Below are positions 1 to 5,836 of a stretch of DNA of 5,836 nt, piece by piece. The DNA is from an uncultured bacterium (lineage in GTDB: Bacteria > Patescibacteriota > Gracilibacteria > Absconditabacterales > Absconditicoccaceae), in NCBI GenBank assembly GCA_903943625.1, contig CAJAPL010000071.1:1-5836 (forward strand). The letters are read 5' to 3'. The notes below the pieces were generated by a model, which worked only from the letters and a program-made list of their open reading frames with translations, was not told the origin of the DNA and did not search any database. The stretch's first letter is position 1; each line of letters begins with the position of its first letter. The translations under genes and the position numbers were made by a program.

Positions 1-3000
1 GATTTTTGAACTTATTGTTGTATCATATTTTTTACTTGAATATAGTTCTATATTTAATTCGTCTCAGTTCTGTACGTATCCACTTGTTCATATAGCTGCT
101 CAATTTACATAGAGCATTCCCTTTGTGACTGTAGCTAGTGTGACATCGTTGAAATTTGCAATCGTGAATGGATCTGACATATAGCTTTTATCTATCTGAG
201 CGTTCCTTAGTCGAGGGATTGTTCCAACTATCATAGGAGTTCCTCATCATCACAATGAAACATTAGATACTATGTTGAAATACGATAGTTTGTTTGTCCT
301 GAATTCACACATTTTATTTGCATCTAATATACATAACTCATCTATATAAACTTTCTCTCGACCTATTGAGCATTGTGCGGATCTAAATATGCGGTATGTG
401 TTTCAAACTGTTCAACTATTTACTTTAACTTTTATTGTAAAGTATCATCCAGCTTGGTTAGATGTGATTGTTGATCAACTAGCTCATGCTTGGAATTCTA
501 GTATAACAACAGGGTTGCTTAGTCATGAAGATATGCTTGTTAAAACATTGGCTGGAGCGGAACAAGATCAAGCTGTTAATATTGTCGGTGGTATAAGTAT
601 TCAATCTCGATTTCAATATGATATTCAAACAGAATTTATTCATAATATATTTAGATATCAACCAGTGTTGGCTCAAATACCGTATATTATAATGTTTCAT
701 GGAATATTAAATGTTGTTCATGAAGGTATTGTTCATGTTACTGTTGTATTTCATGTTCATATTAGAGTACATGTTCAGCTTAGATTTATCCATCAACTTC
801 GACACAATGTTCAAGTAAATATGTTTCATGATATAACCACAGGTGTTGTACATGTTCATGTTTTTACTATAGTTCATGTTATGTTACTAGTAGCAATAAG
901 TGTCGCTGTATATGATCATGCATTTATATAACTGTATGCTACTGTATAATTTGATGAATTAGAAGTTACAGATACTCAATTCCCATTTCAAAATGTTAGT
1001 TCTGTTATTTTAGATCGTGAAGATGAGTTTCAAGTAAATGTTACGTTTTGTCCGGTATATTTTGGTGAATCATTTGTAATTGTACAAGTGGGAGTTTCTA
1101 AAATACAAGAAGAACTACAACCATCTCAACTTGTTAGATTTCAGTCGTCACATTGTTCGTCTAGCTCTAATATATTGTTGCCGCAGGCAGTTCATGTGGC
1201 TGATAATATAGTTACCGGTGTTGTACAAGTGGATTTAACTGATCAGGAATATTGATTATGAACGGTTACTGTTCAGGTATAACTTCAAGAGATTGTATAT
1301 ATATGTCATGTATTAATGGTTCAAGATCATGATAATGGGATATTGCCGCTTCATCATATTCAGCTGTTATCTCAGAAGTTAATTGACTCAAATATAGCTC
1401 GTCATCAAGTACTTGTGAACGAAACCACTTGTCCAGTATATTTTGGTGAGTTGTTTGATAGTGTACAAGAAGGCATCTCTACTGTACAAGAAGAACTACA
1501 ACCATCTCAATTTGTTTGATTTCAGTCGTCGCATTGTTCATATATATTTCAACTGTTTGGTGTCTGTTGTGTTCAATCTCCACAATATGTTCAAGTTGCT
1601 TGACTAACTATAATAGTTCATGTACTGATACAATTAAACGCTCAAGAATAAGCATTGGCTCAAGTAAGAGAATAAATAAAAGTTCAAGTAAGTGAATATG
1701 TTTTTGTTAGAGGAATCACAAAAGTTCAGGTACTAGATCAATCTCAGAAATTAAGTGTATAGTTTGTTCGAGAATTTTTTACTCAAGAGAACACTACGGG
1801 TAAGGGGGAATATCATGAATTTGGCGTTGCTGTTAATCAAGTACAAGAAGGCATCTCTAGCATACAAGAAGAATCACAACCATCTCAATTTGTTAAATTT
1901 CAATCGTCGCATTGTTCTCAAGTATTTATGCTGCCATTACTACATTCTGGAATACACTGTCCGCCGCTCCGTGTATAGCTTGAATTACAAGCAAATACAC
2001 AAATTCAAGTTGTTGGGCTATATGTTCGTGAGTAGACCGGAAGCCATTCTCATCAACTTAGTGTTTGTAGATAACTTGTTGTTGTCCCTGGTAGAATTAC
2101 TGAATGATTTATAAGTAGTGATCCTATACAGCTTCATGTTTGAGTTGTGATTCATGTAAGTCATAATATAGTTACTGAGGTTGTACATATGGATTTAACT
2201 AATCAAGAATATTGATTGTGAACGGTTACTGTTCACGTGTATGTTCAAGTGTTGGCGTAGGTGTGTCCTGTGTTGATGCTTCAAGAGCCAGATAGTGTTC
2301 ATGTTCAGTTATTATTTCAGAAATTAATTGACTCAAATATAGCTCGTCATCAAGTACTTGTGAACGAAACCACTTGTCCAGTATATTTGGGTGAGTTGTT
2401 TGATAGTGTACAAGAAGGAATCTCTACTACACAAGAAGAACTACAACCATCTCAATTTGTGTTGTTTCAGTCGTCACATTGTTCTCATGCGTTTGGATTG
2501 CCGTTACCACATGCATCATATACCGTTATGCTTCAAGTTACTATACAGTCTAATCATCCAGAAAAGGGATTTGATCAGGTGAGTGTAACCATATATGTTC
2601 AGGTGTTGTTAAGCACACTTGAAGTACTGAAACTAGATCATCAAGTTCATATAGAGGCAAATAAATATATAGAAGCCCCGCCAGTTGATACTTTTATGCT
2701 GCGAGATATTCAAGCTTGATTTCATATCCAAAAAGAAGCAGTTAAAGGTGCTGGTCAGCTTATTGGACTGAATCAACCTGTACATGAAGGCACTATTAGA
2801 GTACAATCATTATTACAAGCTCGTCATGTTGATGATGCTCGATCGCATTGTTCTCAGATTCCTATTATTCAATCTCAACAAGTTGCCGGGATTAATTGAC
2901 AGGAACTAGAGGTGCCACTTCGCATATATCATGTGATACATTTGAAATTACAAGATCATATGGTCGGTGATGCTGCATATATTCAGGCTGTAGTTGGACT

Positions 3001-3744
3001 TCGAGTTAATCAATTCCGAGTTTGTGTTATACTATAAGTTGTTGCTCGATTATAGTAAACTCAGCTTAAAACTACTCATGTACAAGCTCAAGTTTGGTTC
3101 AATGAAGGCACTCATGTTCCCCGAAAACTTGCTACTCAACCCCATTGGTCTCGGAAATATCATGTTGTGTTGTTGAAAAATCTAAGAGTTCATGATAGTC
3201 ATCATGTATATGTGTTGTTGGTAAAGTCATATGTTACTCATGCAATCATATTAAATATTGTTCAAGAGTATCGGTCGTGTGTTATCTGTCAGTATATTTC
3301 ATCTGGGCTGGATCCACTACAGAGGGTATACCATCAACCACTAATATTGAGATTATTATATCAAGTATCTAGCGTTTTTAGTGTGTCTAAGGTGTTTTTG
3401 TCTAGAGGCCAAAGTCTATATCCTCTCTGATTATTGTAATATAATCATCTAATCTGCCTAGTACATGTTTTTGTTGTTCCCCCTAATGTAATTGTGTCTG
3501 TAGCATATCAGGCTGGCAATAGGAAAAATGTTCCATAAAAATCATTTCATCCGTAATTGAAATGAGCATGATTTATATATCATGTTATTCCTGGGAATCA
3601 TCCGAGAATGTTGTTGTCAAATTCTATGCTATTTGCATGAGTTTGAGATGAAATAATATAGACAGCAAGTGAAGTAACTATAAAAAGTCAGATTTTAACT
3701 AATCTTTTTAAATCACTAGTCTTGTATAAAAATTTGGTTGTCAT
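1..3744 (-). CDS. Large secreted modular surface protein with DUF4215-like Cys-rich repeats and PKD-like domains (UGA=Gly), C-terminus cut by window edge
   Basis: An uninterrupted frame of 1248 codons (no UAA/UAG) is seen when UGA is read as glycine. The ATG at 3742-3744 is the only ATG after the upstream in-frame TAA at 3763-3765. It opens a signal peptide: basic KRLVK, hydrophobic IGLFIVTSLAVYII, likely cleavage after THA (residue 37). Then come: an N-terminal domain, 38-205, with RGLYYNNQRG and RLWPLD (99-115); a Cys/Trp-rich module, 221-282; DUF4215-like disulfide repeats at about 289-321, 412-445, 601-634, 721-760 and 854-887 (EQCDDGN, NGDGCSSSC), each followed by a PKD-like beta domain (NFGDG at 665-669); a second Cys/Trp module, 539-597; a Gly/Thr-rich region, 950-1088; an Ig-like part with VYIDELC (1132-1138); a GGGG linker, 1165-1168; and a domain with VQNGDELNIEL that runs off the window. 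It should be exported, disulfide-bonded and surface-exposed, probably an adhesin; the ligand is unknown. Frame and domain types are seen; adhesion is inferred. Confidence 0.95.
1082..1158 (-). repeat. DUF4215-type cassette copy 5 (77 bp)
   Basis: This block encodes residues 863-888 with EQCDDGN, SGDGC, SSSC and PTC, preceded by ACGNN at 853-857. It is the most diverged of the four closely related cassettes at DNA level but keeps every cysteine and the DDGN and GDGC motifs. It is the last disulfide repeat before the protein changes to Gly/Thr-rich beta regions with fewer cysteines. Confidence 0.85.
1201..1539 (-). repeat. Long repeat unit (PKD 4 plus DUF4215 4), partner of 2161-2484
   Basis: This unit matches 2161-2484 in the same orientation. 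From 1381 to 1539 against 2326 to 2484 I count about 8 differences in 159 bases, with no gap. The 5' part (1201-1275 against 2161-2235) is also clearly alike but offset by 15 more bases, so five codons differ in length in between. It encodes a PKD-like domain (YTGQVVSFTSTGG, NFGD) and the preceding disulfide repeat. The identity is higher than protein constraint alone would need, pointing to recent duplication or gene conversion. Confidence 0.85.
1463..1539 (-). repeat. DUF4215-type cassette copy 4 (77 bp)
   Basis: This block encodes residues 736-761 with EQCDDGN, NGDGC, SSSC and PSC. The upstream CGDG at 721-724 completes the classic CGDG...EQCDDGN...GDGC..C layout. This copy gives the clearest match to the family and reveals both the coding strand and the meaning of UGA: glycines in DDGN (1522-1524) and NGD (1507-1509) are UGA. 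Confidence 0.9.
1841..1917 (-). repeat. DUF4215-type cassette copy 3 (77 bp)
   Basis: This block encodes residues 610-635 with EQCDDGN, NGDGC, DSSC and PSC. It is nearly the same DNA as the blocks at 1463-1539 and 2408-2484, differing mainly in one SSS to DSS change and in synonymous positions. The cysteine before the block (C601, CSNGS) replaces the usual CGNG/CGDG opening. It is preceded by the second Cys/Trp module. Confidence 0.85.
1954..2130 (-). repeat. Cys/Trp-rich module, copy 2
   Basis: Residues about 539-597 repeat the copy-1 pattern: C539, C582-x3-C586 (ICVFAC), then C597 (SGGQC). Shared anchors are TT-S--QT, a P four to eight residues on, SPT-G-C-F-C and (T/S)-x-Y-x-[CGA/CGG]-SG. 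Where copy 1 has CGA before SPTT, this copy has a genuine TGG (2044-2046) before LP. Like copy 1 it lies immediately before a DUF4215-like repeat (starting near residue 601). Its insertion explains why the spacing between neighbouring disulfide repeats is 189 codons here rather than about 126. Confidence 0.65.
2161..2484 (-). repeat. Long repeat unit (PKD 2 plus DUF4215 2), partner of 1201-1539
   Basis: This is the second copy of the long repeat and encodes residues about 421-528. The protein YTGQVVSFTSTGG is identical to the other copy, and the FGNN here replaces FGDN there. The ends of both copies carry SYTGTVTVHNQYSG-like sequence (TYTGTVTVHNQYSG here). Because the copies are near-identical and in direct orientation, deletion or amplification between them is possible. 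Confidence 0.85.
2408..2484 (-). repeat. DUF4215-type cassette copy 2 (77 bp)
   Basis: This 77-bp stretch encodes residues 421-446 with EQCDDGN, NGDGC, SSSC and PSC, the core of a DUF4215/Myxococcus-type cysteine repeat. The full repeat begins slightly upstream with C412-GNG. In-frame UGA codons supply the glycines of DDGN (2467-2469) and NGD (2452-2454). The same 77-bp block recurs with few changes at 1841-1917, 1463-1539 and 1082-1158. A more divergent version (EQCD, C-NNDC) lies around 2781-2880. Confidence 0.85.
2899..3084 (-). repeat. Cys/Trp-rich module, copy 1
   Basis: Residues about 221-282 of the minus gene show a four-cysteine pattern: C221, then C265-x3-C269 (SCNFKC), then C282 (SGTSSSC). 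Between the first two lies a QT-x-NGLT-x-SPTT stretch in which both x positions are CGG/CGA codons (3016-3018, 3001-3003). The layout resembles the recurrent 'QTWNG..W.P...C.F.C...YTW.G..C' module I associate with surface proteins of these candidate phyla; that resemblance is from memory. A second, diverged copy lies at 1954-2130. It sits directly before the first DUF4215-like repeat, so the two cysteine modules form a tandem unit. Confidence 0.65.
3634..3744 (-). other. Signal peptide of the large surface protein
   Basis: Residues 1-37 of the minus-strand gene have the three parts of a Sec signal peptide. The start is polar and basic (KTSDLKRLVK), followed by a hydrophobic stretch of about 14 residues (IGLFIVTSLAVYII) and a small-residue cleavage site, Thr-His-Ala before Asn-Ser. 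This supports the choice of ATG at 3744 and places the rest of the protein outside the cytoplasm, as expected for a protein with paired cysteines. The UGA at 3688-3690 gives the glycine in KIGLF. Confidence 0.85.
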
Positions 3745-3900: not shown

Positions 3901-3993
3901 GATGCTGGGATTTTTTATTGTTTACTTGTTTTGGTTGAAAAAGACTATTATTTTGTTAGATTAGATTAGATTTATTTTTATTAATTGTCGAAT

Positions 3994-5836
3994 ATGACAG
4001 ACCCGTTTTTTAAAACAGCTACAAATACAAGTCAAGATAAGCAATCTCAGCTAAATGATAATAAAAAGAGGGTAGATGAGCTGACTCTAAAACAAAAGCA
4101 ATTGGAGCAGGAATTTTTAAAATTAAACGATTATTTGAAAAATGGAGCTTTGACTAACGAGCAAAAGGTATCAATACAACAACAAATGCAACAACTTGAC
4201 TTTCAATATAAGCAAAACGCTACTGCTTTAAAAAGTTTGTGAATCTGAGAGTCTTCTGTAAAGGTAAATACTCAGATAAAATCTTGATCCAAGGTGTCTA
4301 TGAGACAGTTTTTGGTTTGATGTGCTATAGTTTTATTTTTGCTTGTTTGATGATTGGCTGCTATATTTTATTACTTGGTTAGCAATCCTACTCAAATGAG
4401 TAGCATGGGAGTCACTCCACAAACAGCCAAGACATTACTACAGACTTTTGTTGTTATATTTTTTGGGTTTTTGTTTTTATTGGGTTTCGCTTTGATTATT
4501 GTTAATGCGTATAGATTGATTACCGTGAAGAACAAATCCAAAACCTGATATACCATGTGAATGATATTGTGAATTGTAGTGTTTATTTTTTCTATAGCAT
4601 TTGGATCAATATTACTTAGTAGAATAGCCAATATATCTGTCGGAGATTTGTCTGATCCTAATAAATTAATTAGGCCATCTCTCCTTTTAAAAGACTGACC
4701 AATATATGTTTTATCTGACCCTAGTTTAAAACTTATAGCACCTTGAATAATAAGTTTTGAAATAAACACTAGCTTATTTGATAGTCAGATATTGCCTAAA
4801 TTATGACAGGTTCAGATTCAATGAATACAACTAGATTGTGGCAATGACCAAAAACTAGATATTGATATGAAGACAGCAGAATTTAATTGATCTTGTATAT
4901 ATTATGCTAAATGAAACTATCCTTTAAATCTACTTGTCTCCTATATTAATTCTCAAACGTCAGAAAAACTACAGAAGACTTTTGAAGCCTGAAATCTAAA
5001 CTTTGAGTCAGAGATTATGGTAACAAATAAAGATAATTCTGTTAAAAATATCCCATTGGATGTGATTGTATGAAAAGTCCCCTCAAAGGTTACTTTCGAT
5101 GCTTCAGAGGTTTTTAAAAACTTTAGTTTAAACGATTATAGCGTTGTCTGGGATGTTAATGGAGATTGAACGCCAGATAAAACAAATGATGTAAGTTTTA
5201 CGTATGTTTACAAGGAAGCTAAAGTTTACCATGTATGAATAAGGTTCCCCACTTTAAATAAATATTTATATAGTTTTCCCGTAAGAGTAGAGCAGTCAGA
5301 TGTCCCTATTTGTGAGGTGATCTTGAATCCTATAAAATCAACTGAGTATAATATAAAGACAAATTTCTTGGATTCTAGTATATGAATTACTGATTACCAG
5401 TTTGATATTTTTGATTCAGAGAAATGAAAAGTAATTGATAGTATAAAAAATAAAAAATGATATATAGATTATACTCTTCCTTCAAAATGAGTCTATTCTG
5501 TAATTGTAAACTTTATAACCGAAGAATGAAAACCATGACAATGTGAAAGTGATGATATCGAAATAGGGCAGATGGACTTTGATATTTTGTATGATCTTTA
5601 TTATAAATCTCCACAAGCTCCAAATTTTACTAAAATTGATCAGCAAAAATCTGATATGTTTCAGGATTGAAATTTGATTATTAAAGAGATTCCAACAGTA
5701 CTGAAACTTGATATAACGAAAATAATCCCAGATAGCCCTGGGCTAACCAAGAGTGTTTTGCTTAATTCTAAACCAGTTTTATCTTCTGATAATAAGTCTT
5801 TCCAAATAAGCTTAGATGAGAATAAGGATTATGAAA
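3994..5836 (+). CDS. Membrane-anchored PKD-domain protein with N-terminal coiled coil (UGA=Gly), C-terminus cut by window edge
   Basis: The frame stays open for 614 codons to the window end when 26 UGA codons are read as glycine; the standard code would stop it at 4240. ATG 3994 is preferred; an in-frame TTG at 3985 would add three residues. Residues about 13-79 are charged, Gln/Lys/Glu/Leu-rich and heptad-like, probably a cytoplasmic coiled coil. Three hydrophobic helices follow: 106-129, 151-172 (then basic RLITVKNKSK, fitting the inside) and 190-209. So the N-terminus would be inside and everything after 210 outside. A PKD domain spans roughly 358-425: VTFDAS, WDVNGDGTPD (386-395), then FTYVYKEAKVYHVG. 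Asp387, Asn389, Asp391 and Asp395 form a DxNxDGxxD calcium-type loop whose Gly392 is UGA. Further beta-rich sequence with isolated cysteines follows (300, 311, 435, 517). It contains no CGN codon, and all arginines are AGA/AGG. Its exact role is unknown; a surface receptor or structural protein is likely. Confidence 0.94.

What the first reader, a model, noticed from the sequence alone, without database searches (positions are those of the whole stretch)
1954..3273. CGA and CGG probably encode tryptophan, a second codon reassignment
Seen: the minus gene has 16 CGA and 3 CGG codons, while recognised arginines (RGLYYNNQRG, RLWPLD) use AGA/AGG, and CGT is absent. CGA at 3001-3003 (LT-x-SP) aligns with a real TGG at 2044-2046 (GE-W-LP) in the second Cys/Trp module. 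CGA at 2920 and CGG at 1969 share one position (Y-x-[ ]-SG..C) where related modules, as I recall them, have Trp. CGG at 3016 lies in QT-[ ]-NG (expected QTWNG). CGA at 3151 lies in GYF-[ ]-DQWGG, like G.aW...GW motifs. The plus gene has no CGN codon. Known: CGA/CGG to Trp was reported for Absconditabacteria by Shulgina and Eddy (2021). Inference: this window comes from that lineage.
Basis: partly seen in the sequence, partly recalled or inferred. Interest (0 to 1): 0.85.

Follow-up and report, generated by a model that had tools for sequence, protein, structure and literature searches.

The report
Two arginine codons read as tryptophan
In this small uncultured bacterium the codons CGA and CGG, which mean arginine in nearly all life, stand where related proteins have tryptophan and are therefore likely read as tryptophan; this is an already published genetic code for its family, seen here in a genome that uses it heavily.

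Summary
The finding holds. The minus gene has 16 CGA and 3 CGG codons. A small decoding test on six conserved proteins of the same genome gave the expected amino acid for 60 of 62 codons of table 25; the two exceptions were CGA and CGG, both decoding as Trp. At 71 conserved Arg columns the genome never uses CGA or CGG; at 22 conserved Trp columns it uses CGA 9, CGG 2 and TGG 6 times. Its UCG and CCG tRNAs have Trp-type bases (G73, no A20), while its GCG and CCU tRNAs look like Arg. The genome shares a GTDB family with Absconditicoccus praedator, so this is the Absconditabacteria code of Shulgina and Eddy 2021 (PMC8629427): known, not new. What goes further is usage: CGA+CGG are 59% of Trp codons sampled here (207 of 351), and the share runs from 5% to 62% over 29 family members. 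Eighteen of 29 exceed the published CGA maximum of 37 per 10,000, though counting differs. One genome from each of two sister families that also read UGA as Gly keeps an Arg-type tRNA-UCG. Decoding in the cell is untested.

The parts
1..3744 (-). DUF4215/PKD repeat protein gene (1248 codons visible, runs off the contig) that carries the 19 CGA/CGG codons
   Evidence: table-25 ORF; Pfam DUF4215 and PKD; homologues P0002, P0003, P0004
3271..3273 (-). CGA, likely Trp
   Evidence: P0003 has R here
3151..3153 (-). CGA, likely Trp
   Evidence: W in P0003 and in the SR1 protein P0048
3121..3123 (-). CGG, likely Trp
   Evidence: W in P0003
3046..3048 (-). CGA, likely Trp
   Evidence: G in P0003
3016..3018 (-). 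CGG, likely Trp (QT-x-NG)
   Evidence: R in P0003
3001..3003 (-). CGA, likely Trp; same module position as TGG 2044-2046
   Evidence: sequence; R in P0003
2920..2922 (-). CGA, likely Trp; same module position as CGG 1969
   Evidence: sequence; R in P0003
2839..2841 (-). CGA, likely Trp
   Evidence: unaligned in P0003
2821..2823 (-). CGA, likely Trp
   Evidence: unaligned in P0003
2344..2346 (-). CGA, likely Trp
   Evidence: R in P0003
2044..2046 (-). TGG (ordinary Trp); R in P0003, i.e. the reverse exchange
2026..2028 (-). CGA, likely Trp
   Evidence: R in P0003
1969..1971 (-). CGG, likely Trp
   Evidence: R in P0003
1768..1770 (-). CGA, likely Trp
   Evidence: R in P0003
1399..1401 (-). CGA, likely Trp
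   Evidence: unaligned in P0003
1015..1017 (-). CGA, likely Trp
   Evidence: unaligned in P0003
799..801 (-). CGA, likely Trp
   Evidence: R in P0003
607..609 (-). CGA, likely Trp
   Evidence: R in P0003
358..360 (-). CGA, likely Trp
   Evidence: R in P0003
211..213 (-). CGA, likely Trp
   Evidence: W in P0003
3985..5835 (+). second gene, no Pfam hit, no CGN codon, 26 TGA

Best explanation
In this Absconditicoccaceae genome CGA and CGG stand at conserved tryptophan positions and are likely read as tryptophan by two tRNAs (anticodons UCG and CCG) that carry tryptophan-type identity bases and would be charged by the one TrpRS found. Shown by sequence: the codons fall in Trp or other aromatic columns and in no conserved Arg column; the UCG and CCG tRNAs have G73 and no A20 (CCG also A1:U72; the own UCG has G1:C72); conserved Arg is written AGA, AGG, CGT and CGC, and the GCG and CCU tRNAs look like Arg (A20, A73); UGA decodes as Gly. 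Inferred: charging by TrpRS, and UCG reading both CGA and CGG by wobble with CCG helping on CGG. Also inferred: Arg-type decoding of CGA/CGG was lost on the branch to this family, because one genome from each of two sister UGA=Gly families keeps an Arg-type tRNA-UCG; afterwards TGG drifted to CGG and CGA by synonymous transitions, to a different degree in each genus. It is the published Absconditabacteria code, in a member with heavy use.
For: Decoding test on LeuRS, RpoB, UvrD, PBP, U32 peptidase and FtsW/RodA against standard-code or outgroup homologues: 60 of 62 codons come out as table 25; CGA (21 columns) W +42.7, R -26.9; CGG (3 columns) W +12.0, R -4.5. Of these 24 columns W is commonest at 12 and ties with F at 1; Arg is commonest at none. 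RpoB residue 891: 76 of 76 homologues with a residue there have W. Conserved columns: Trp 22 = CGA 9, CGG 2, TGG 6, other 5; Arg 71 = AGA 32, AGG 12, CGT 7, CGC 1, other 19, CGA/CGG 0. LeuRS: own has CGA/CGG at 8 of 9 Trp columns; 24 of 27 family members examined (of 33 in the search) use CGA/CGG at one or more of them, 0 of 17 outgroup genomes do. Solved LeuRS 3ziu has W at 7 of the 8 columns; UvrD CGG 300 is W in the three solved helicases shown; the two CGG at UMPH-1 99-100 are W-W or W-Y in the four solved proteins shown. tRNAs in the family, own included: 32 UCG and 23 CCG parsed, all G73, none A20. Two PF00579 genes only, one TyrRS-like and one TrpRS-like.
Against: Of the 24 CGA/CGG columns, F or Y is commonest at 7 (LeuRS 178, PBP 141, U32 219, UvrD 315 and 669, FtsW 187 and 245) and 4 are mixed (U32 312, PBP 870 and 934, UvrD 726); Arg appears once each in PBP 934 and UvrD 726. 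A second solved LeuRS (9tjv) has W at 5 of 8, with V, K and H at the rest. The other five CGA/CGG codons of UMPH-1 and the five aligned ones of LigA show neither W nor conserved R. In P0003 11 of 15 aligned window columns are printed R. The own tRNA-UCG has G1:C72, so it lacks the weak Trp element U72. The tRNA pattern was built on the own anticodon stem and missed 11 of 49 genomes, so Arg-type tRNAs with other stems could be missed. CGG rests on 3 columns. No protein or charging data.
Confidence: 0.96

Rival explanations
1. Plain table 25: only UGA is reassigned (Gly) and CGA/CGG stay arginine; the window contexts are coincidence.
For: An annotated relative prints R at 11 of 15 aligned columns (P0003); ARAGORN labels the tRNAs 'Arg', but by anticodon alone.
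Against: The score for R is negative for both codons, 0 of 71 conserved Arg columns use them, 76 of 76 RpoB homologues have W at the CGA; tRNA identity bases.
Confidence: 0.02
2. Ambiguous decoding: CGA/CGG give a mixture of Trp and Arg because the tRNAs could still be charged partly by ArgRS (C35 and G36 of the Arg anticodon are kept), or because other tRNAs misread them.
For: C35 and G36 are kept; charging cannot be read from sequence; the 2021 authors also leave ambiguity open (section 11).
Against: No A20 and G73 in all 55 tRNAs parsed; no CGA/CGG at conserved Arg columns, so any Arg reading is not relied on.
Confidence: 0.1
3. Contamination or a mobile element: only the window gene or its contig uses the odd code.
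For: 216-contig draft, 3% contamination estimate.
Against: CGA/CGG at Trp columns in LeuRS, RpoB, PBP, UvrD and U32 on five other contigs and in LeuRS of the same-genus genome G118.
Confidence: 0.01

Closest known systems
Absconditabacteria (SR1) code: UGA=Gly, CGA and CGG=Trp (Shulgina and Eddy 2021, PMC8629427; outline, passages and section 11 read)
   Same: Same two codons to Trp on top of UGA=Gly; same tRNAs (UCG, CCG; GCG for CGU/CGC) with the identity rule the authors used; low GC (0.32 in the sample); same family.
   Different: They describe an early stage: CGA under 37 per 10,000 in all their species, with one species near parity (CGA 30, CGG 24, TGG 35). Here CGA is 52.9 and TGG 47.4 per 10,000 in whole ORFs, and 18 of 29 family members sampled pass 37 for CGA; they counted aligned Pfam columns only.
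NCBI table 25 (SR1 and Gracilibacteria)
   Same: UGA=Gly (197 columns decode as G).
   Different: Table 25 keeps CGA/CGG as Arg, which does not fit this genome. A separate NCBI table for this order with CGA/CGG=Trp is recalled, not seen in any call.
CGG-to-Trp codes of Anaerococcus and of an RFN20 Bacilli clade (PMC8629427, section 11; PMC13092985 names Anaerococcus and Onthovivens, passages)
   Same: CGG read as Trp, with a Trp-type tRNA-CCG.
   Different: There CGA stays Arg and tRNA-UCG is missing; here both codons move and tRNA-UCG is present.

Membership tests
Absconditabacteria code (UGA=Gly, CGA/CGG=Trp) | UGA decodes as Gly | tested here: met
   197 columns, G +296.0
Absconditabacteria code (UGA=Gly, CGA/CGG=Trp) | CGA decodes as Trp | tested here: met
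   21 columns, W +42.7 against R -26.9
Absconditabacteria code (UGA=Gly, CGA/CGG=Trp) | CGG decodes as Trp | tested here: met
   3 columns, W +12.0 against R -4.5; UMPH-1 99 W in four of four solved proteins shown
Absconditabacteria code (UGA=Gly, CGA/CGG=Trp) | tRNA-UCG and tRNA-CCG with G73 and not A20 | tested here: met
   own tRNAs; 32 UCG and 23 CCG of the family, own included
Absconditabacteria code (UGA=Gly, CGA/CGG=Trp) | CGT/CGC stay Arg with Arg-type tRNA-GCG | tested here: met
   CGT 18 columns R +29.1; CGC only 2 columns, R +1.3; GCG tRNA A20, A73
Absconditabacteria code (UGA=Gly, CGA/CGG=Trp) | genome lies in Absconditabacterales/Absconditicoccaceae | tested here: met
Absconditabacteria code (UGA=Gly, CGA/CGG=Trp) | Trp incorporated at CGA/CGG in the cell | not testable with these tools
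   needs mass spectrometry or charging assays
Table 25 only (CGA/CGG=Arg) | CGA/CGG at conserved Arg columns | tested here: not met
   0 of 71 columns
Gracilibacteria-type sister families (f22, f24) | no CGA/CGG at LeuRS Trp columns and Arg-type tRNA-UCG | tested here: not met
   own uses CGA/CGG at 8 of 9 LeuRS columns and a Trp-type tRNA-UCG; the sister genomes G091 and G141 have A20, A73

The most novel reading that the evidence does not exclude
The family Absconditicoccaceae holds a living series of sense-codon reassignment: every UCG and CCG tRNA parsed in it is Trp-type, yet CGA/CGG supply from 5% to 62% of Trp codons, and in the window's genus and some others CGA has become a leading tryptophan codon, a late stage beyond the published 'early stage' picture. 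It would allow codon capture to be followed step by step within one bacterial family.
Probability: 0.7. Interest if true: 0.5.

Novelty: already known. Interest (0 to 1): 0.35.

Why it matters
Public proteins of this lineage are likely to carry systematic errors: P0003 prints R at columns where the window has TGG, and P0002 and P0004 print W for UGA glycines. Structure prediction, domain search or function calls made on such records start from a wrong sequence. The spread of CGA/CGG use inside one family (5-62%), with Trp-type tRNAs already in place in the low-use A. praedator, makes the order of events in a sense-codon reassignment testable.

Tried and rejected
Tried: placing the genome by name with one scan of genome contigs on RpoB; of 594 relatives the 80 kept bear no Patescibacteria name, so they serve only as standard-code homologues, and placement rests.

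Tried and not supported: the idea that CGA/CGG took over to escape misreading of UGG by the UGA-reading tRNA-Gly. The share of CGA/CGG does not follow the share of UGA among Gly codons over 29 genomes (Spearman -0.04, p 0.83).

Weak: descent of the UCG/CCG tRNAs from tRNA-Trp. They are nearer to tRNA-Trp of A. praedator (0.59-0.67 identity) than to any Arg tRNA compared (0.41-0.51), but only 0.48-0.52 identical to the own-genome tRNA-Trp; 70-base genes cannot settle it.

LigA: five of its six CGA codons lie in the alignments shown, at columns with neither W nor R; not used in the decoding test.
Full report
What was claimed.

Observation. The minus gene (window 3744 to 1, open at the contig end) holds 16 CGA, 3 CGG, 2 CGC, 0 CGT, 6 AGA, 3 AGG, 6 TGG and 124 TGA codons; the plus gene (3985-5835) holds no CGN. 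The quoted contexts are in the sequence as described. Pfam gives DUF4215 and PKD domains for the minus gene and nothing for the plus gene. The homologue P0003 (named Candidatus Gracilibacteria bacterium) has W at 3 of the 19 CGA/CGG columns (3151, 3121, 211), R at 11, G at 1, with 4 unaligned, and R at all 5 aligned window TGG columns. P0003 is printed with R for CGN codons, so its R cannot tell Arg from reassigned Trp; the two-way exchange is what counts. Its DNA was not seen.

Genome-wide test. The window is contig 71 of a 1.01 Mb, 216-contig genome. I took six of its proteins (LeuRS N-half, RpoB, UvrD, PBP, U32 peptidase, FtsW/RodA) and aligned them with homologues from other families of the class or, for RpoB, with 80 other bacteria, hiding CGA/CGG in the query. 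CGA/CGG in a homologue were scored Arg if its aligned reading frame had no in-frame UGA and left out otherwise, which if anything favours Arg. Of 62 codons with data, 60 decode as in table 25; the two exceptions are CGA (21 columns, W +42.7, R -26.9) and CGG (3 columns, W +12.0, R -4.5). Of the 24 columns W is commonest at 12, ties with F at 1, F or Y is commonest at 7, and 4 are mixed; Arg is commonest at none and occurs once each in two. Several homologue loci come from one genome and may include paralogues. At columns with at least 80% W among homologues (22) the genome has CGA 9, CGG 2, TGG 6, other 5; at columns with at least 80% R (71) it has AGA 32, AGG 12, CGT 7, CGC 1, other 19 and no CGA or CGG. 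Solved structures agree in the main: LeuRS 3ziu has W at 7 of 8 CGA/CGG columns, LeuRS 9tjv at 5 of 8; the UvrD CGG column is W in the three helicases shown; the UMPH-1 pair is W-W or W-Y in the four proteins shown, its other five CGA/CGG codons neither W nor R. LigA was uninformative.

tRNAs. The genome has tRNA-UCG and tRNA-CCG, each on two contigs (perhaps one gene at an assembly fork), labelled Arg by ARAGORN from the anticodon alone. Both have G73 and T at position 20; CCG also has A1:U72, like the ordinary tRNA-Trp(CCA); the own UCG has G1:C72. The GCG and CCU tRNAs have A20 and A73. By the rule used in 2021 (G73, not A20; passage read) the first two are Trp acceptors. A pattern search over 49 family genomes found matches in 38; 32 UCG and 23 CCG tRNAs (own included, identical copies in one genome counted once) could be parsed, all G73, none A20; two further CCG genes were not parsed and three loci held no UCG or CCG tRNA. 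A. praedator, missed by the pattern, also has UCG and CCG tRNAs with A1:U72 and G73. The sister genomes G091 (f22) and G141 (f24), which also have UGA inside conserved genes, have an Arg-type tRNA-UCG (A20, A73), and no CCG tRNA turned up among the loci read (a few long-arm tRNAs were not fetched). Two PF00579 genes were found; from motifs that I recognise, not from a family search, one is TyrRS and one TrpRS.

Lineage. In the class search the own family f1 includes G071, whose single contig is 1,129,696 bases long, the length of the contig that carries the RpoB named Candidatus Absconditicoccus praedator (P0215). Other named RpoB hits among the 120 listed are SR1, Absconditicoccaceae, Absconditabacterales, Absconditabacteria and Vampirococcus lugosii; the nearest (88%) is labelled Gracilibacteria. 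In LeuRS, 24 of 27 f1 genomes examined (of 33 in the search; six not fetched) use CGA/CGG at one or more of nine Trp columns; the three that do not are A. praedator, G158 and G022. None of 17 outgroup genomes does, although several of them have UGA inside LeuRS.

How it most likely works. Two Trp-type tRNAs read CGA and CGG; TrpRS is inferred to charge them despite G36; UCG is inferred to wobble onto CGG. CGT and CGC stay Arg through tRNA-GCG. TGG, CGG and CGA are linked by synonymous transitions, which allows drift between them.

Known or new. The reassignment is that of Shulgina and Eddy 2021 (PMC8629427; outline, passages and section 11 read) and is stated for Absconditabacterales in PMC13092985 (passages read). 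PMC13059738 on an Absconditicoccaceae member mentions code 25 (passages read; 'tryptophan' and 'CGA' do not occur in its main text). Searches of the held library listed other papers that were not opened; among those opened only the first two state CGA/CGG to Trp for this clade. What differs is extent. Over 29 family genomes sampled by stretches (most with one stretch of about 20 kb, own with about 120 kb; ORFs of 150 codons or more) the share of CGA+CGG among Trp codons runs from 0.05 to 0.62; own 0.59 (207 of 351, 95% interval 0.54-0.64), 0.58 without the window. Six of 29 exceed 0.5, but only the own genome has an interval wholly above 0.5; CGA exceeds 37 per 10,000 in 18 of 29. The 2021 paper gives under 37 for all its species, counted in Pfam columns, and one species near parity, so the late stage is not without precedent. 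The share is unrelated to UGA use among Gly codons.

Limits. Sequence evidence only. CGG rests on few columns. Usage figures treat every CGA/CGG in sampled ORFs as Trp.

Noticed in passing
L019/L020 and family UCG tRNAs: The tRNA-UCG has an unpaired 27:43 in its anticodon stem (4-bp stem) in 17 of 32 family genes parsed, the own gene included.
   Followed up: partly
L217 (G165) and L216 (G169): Two CCG tRNAs show T27/T43 (4-bp stem; the G169 one read by eye), against the statement in PMC13092985 that all CCG tRNAs of Absconditabacterales have 5-bp stems.
   Followed up: partly
L029 1500-1573 and L030 1500-1573: Two contigs share the 5' flank and the tRNA-CCG gene, then diverge right after it: an assembly fork or an element inserted at the tRNA end.
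   Followed up: no
P0002, P0004: Database copies of the window protein and of a relative are translated with UGA as Trp, so most of their printed Trp residues are really Gly; P0002 continues past the window to 1520 aa.
   Followed up: no
L155, L165 (LeuRS), L248, L249, L397 (codon usage): A. praedator and G158 use little CGA (8.5 and 3.5 per 10,000) and have TGG at eight of nine LeuRS columns and Tyr at the ninth, though A. praedator has Trp-type UCG and CCG tRNAs: an early or reversed stage.
   Followed up: partly
window 1399-1401 and 2344-2346 regions: Two near-identical PKD-type repeats (FTSTGGxAIFESINFG) inside the minus gene suggest internal duplication.
   Followed up: no
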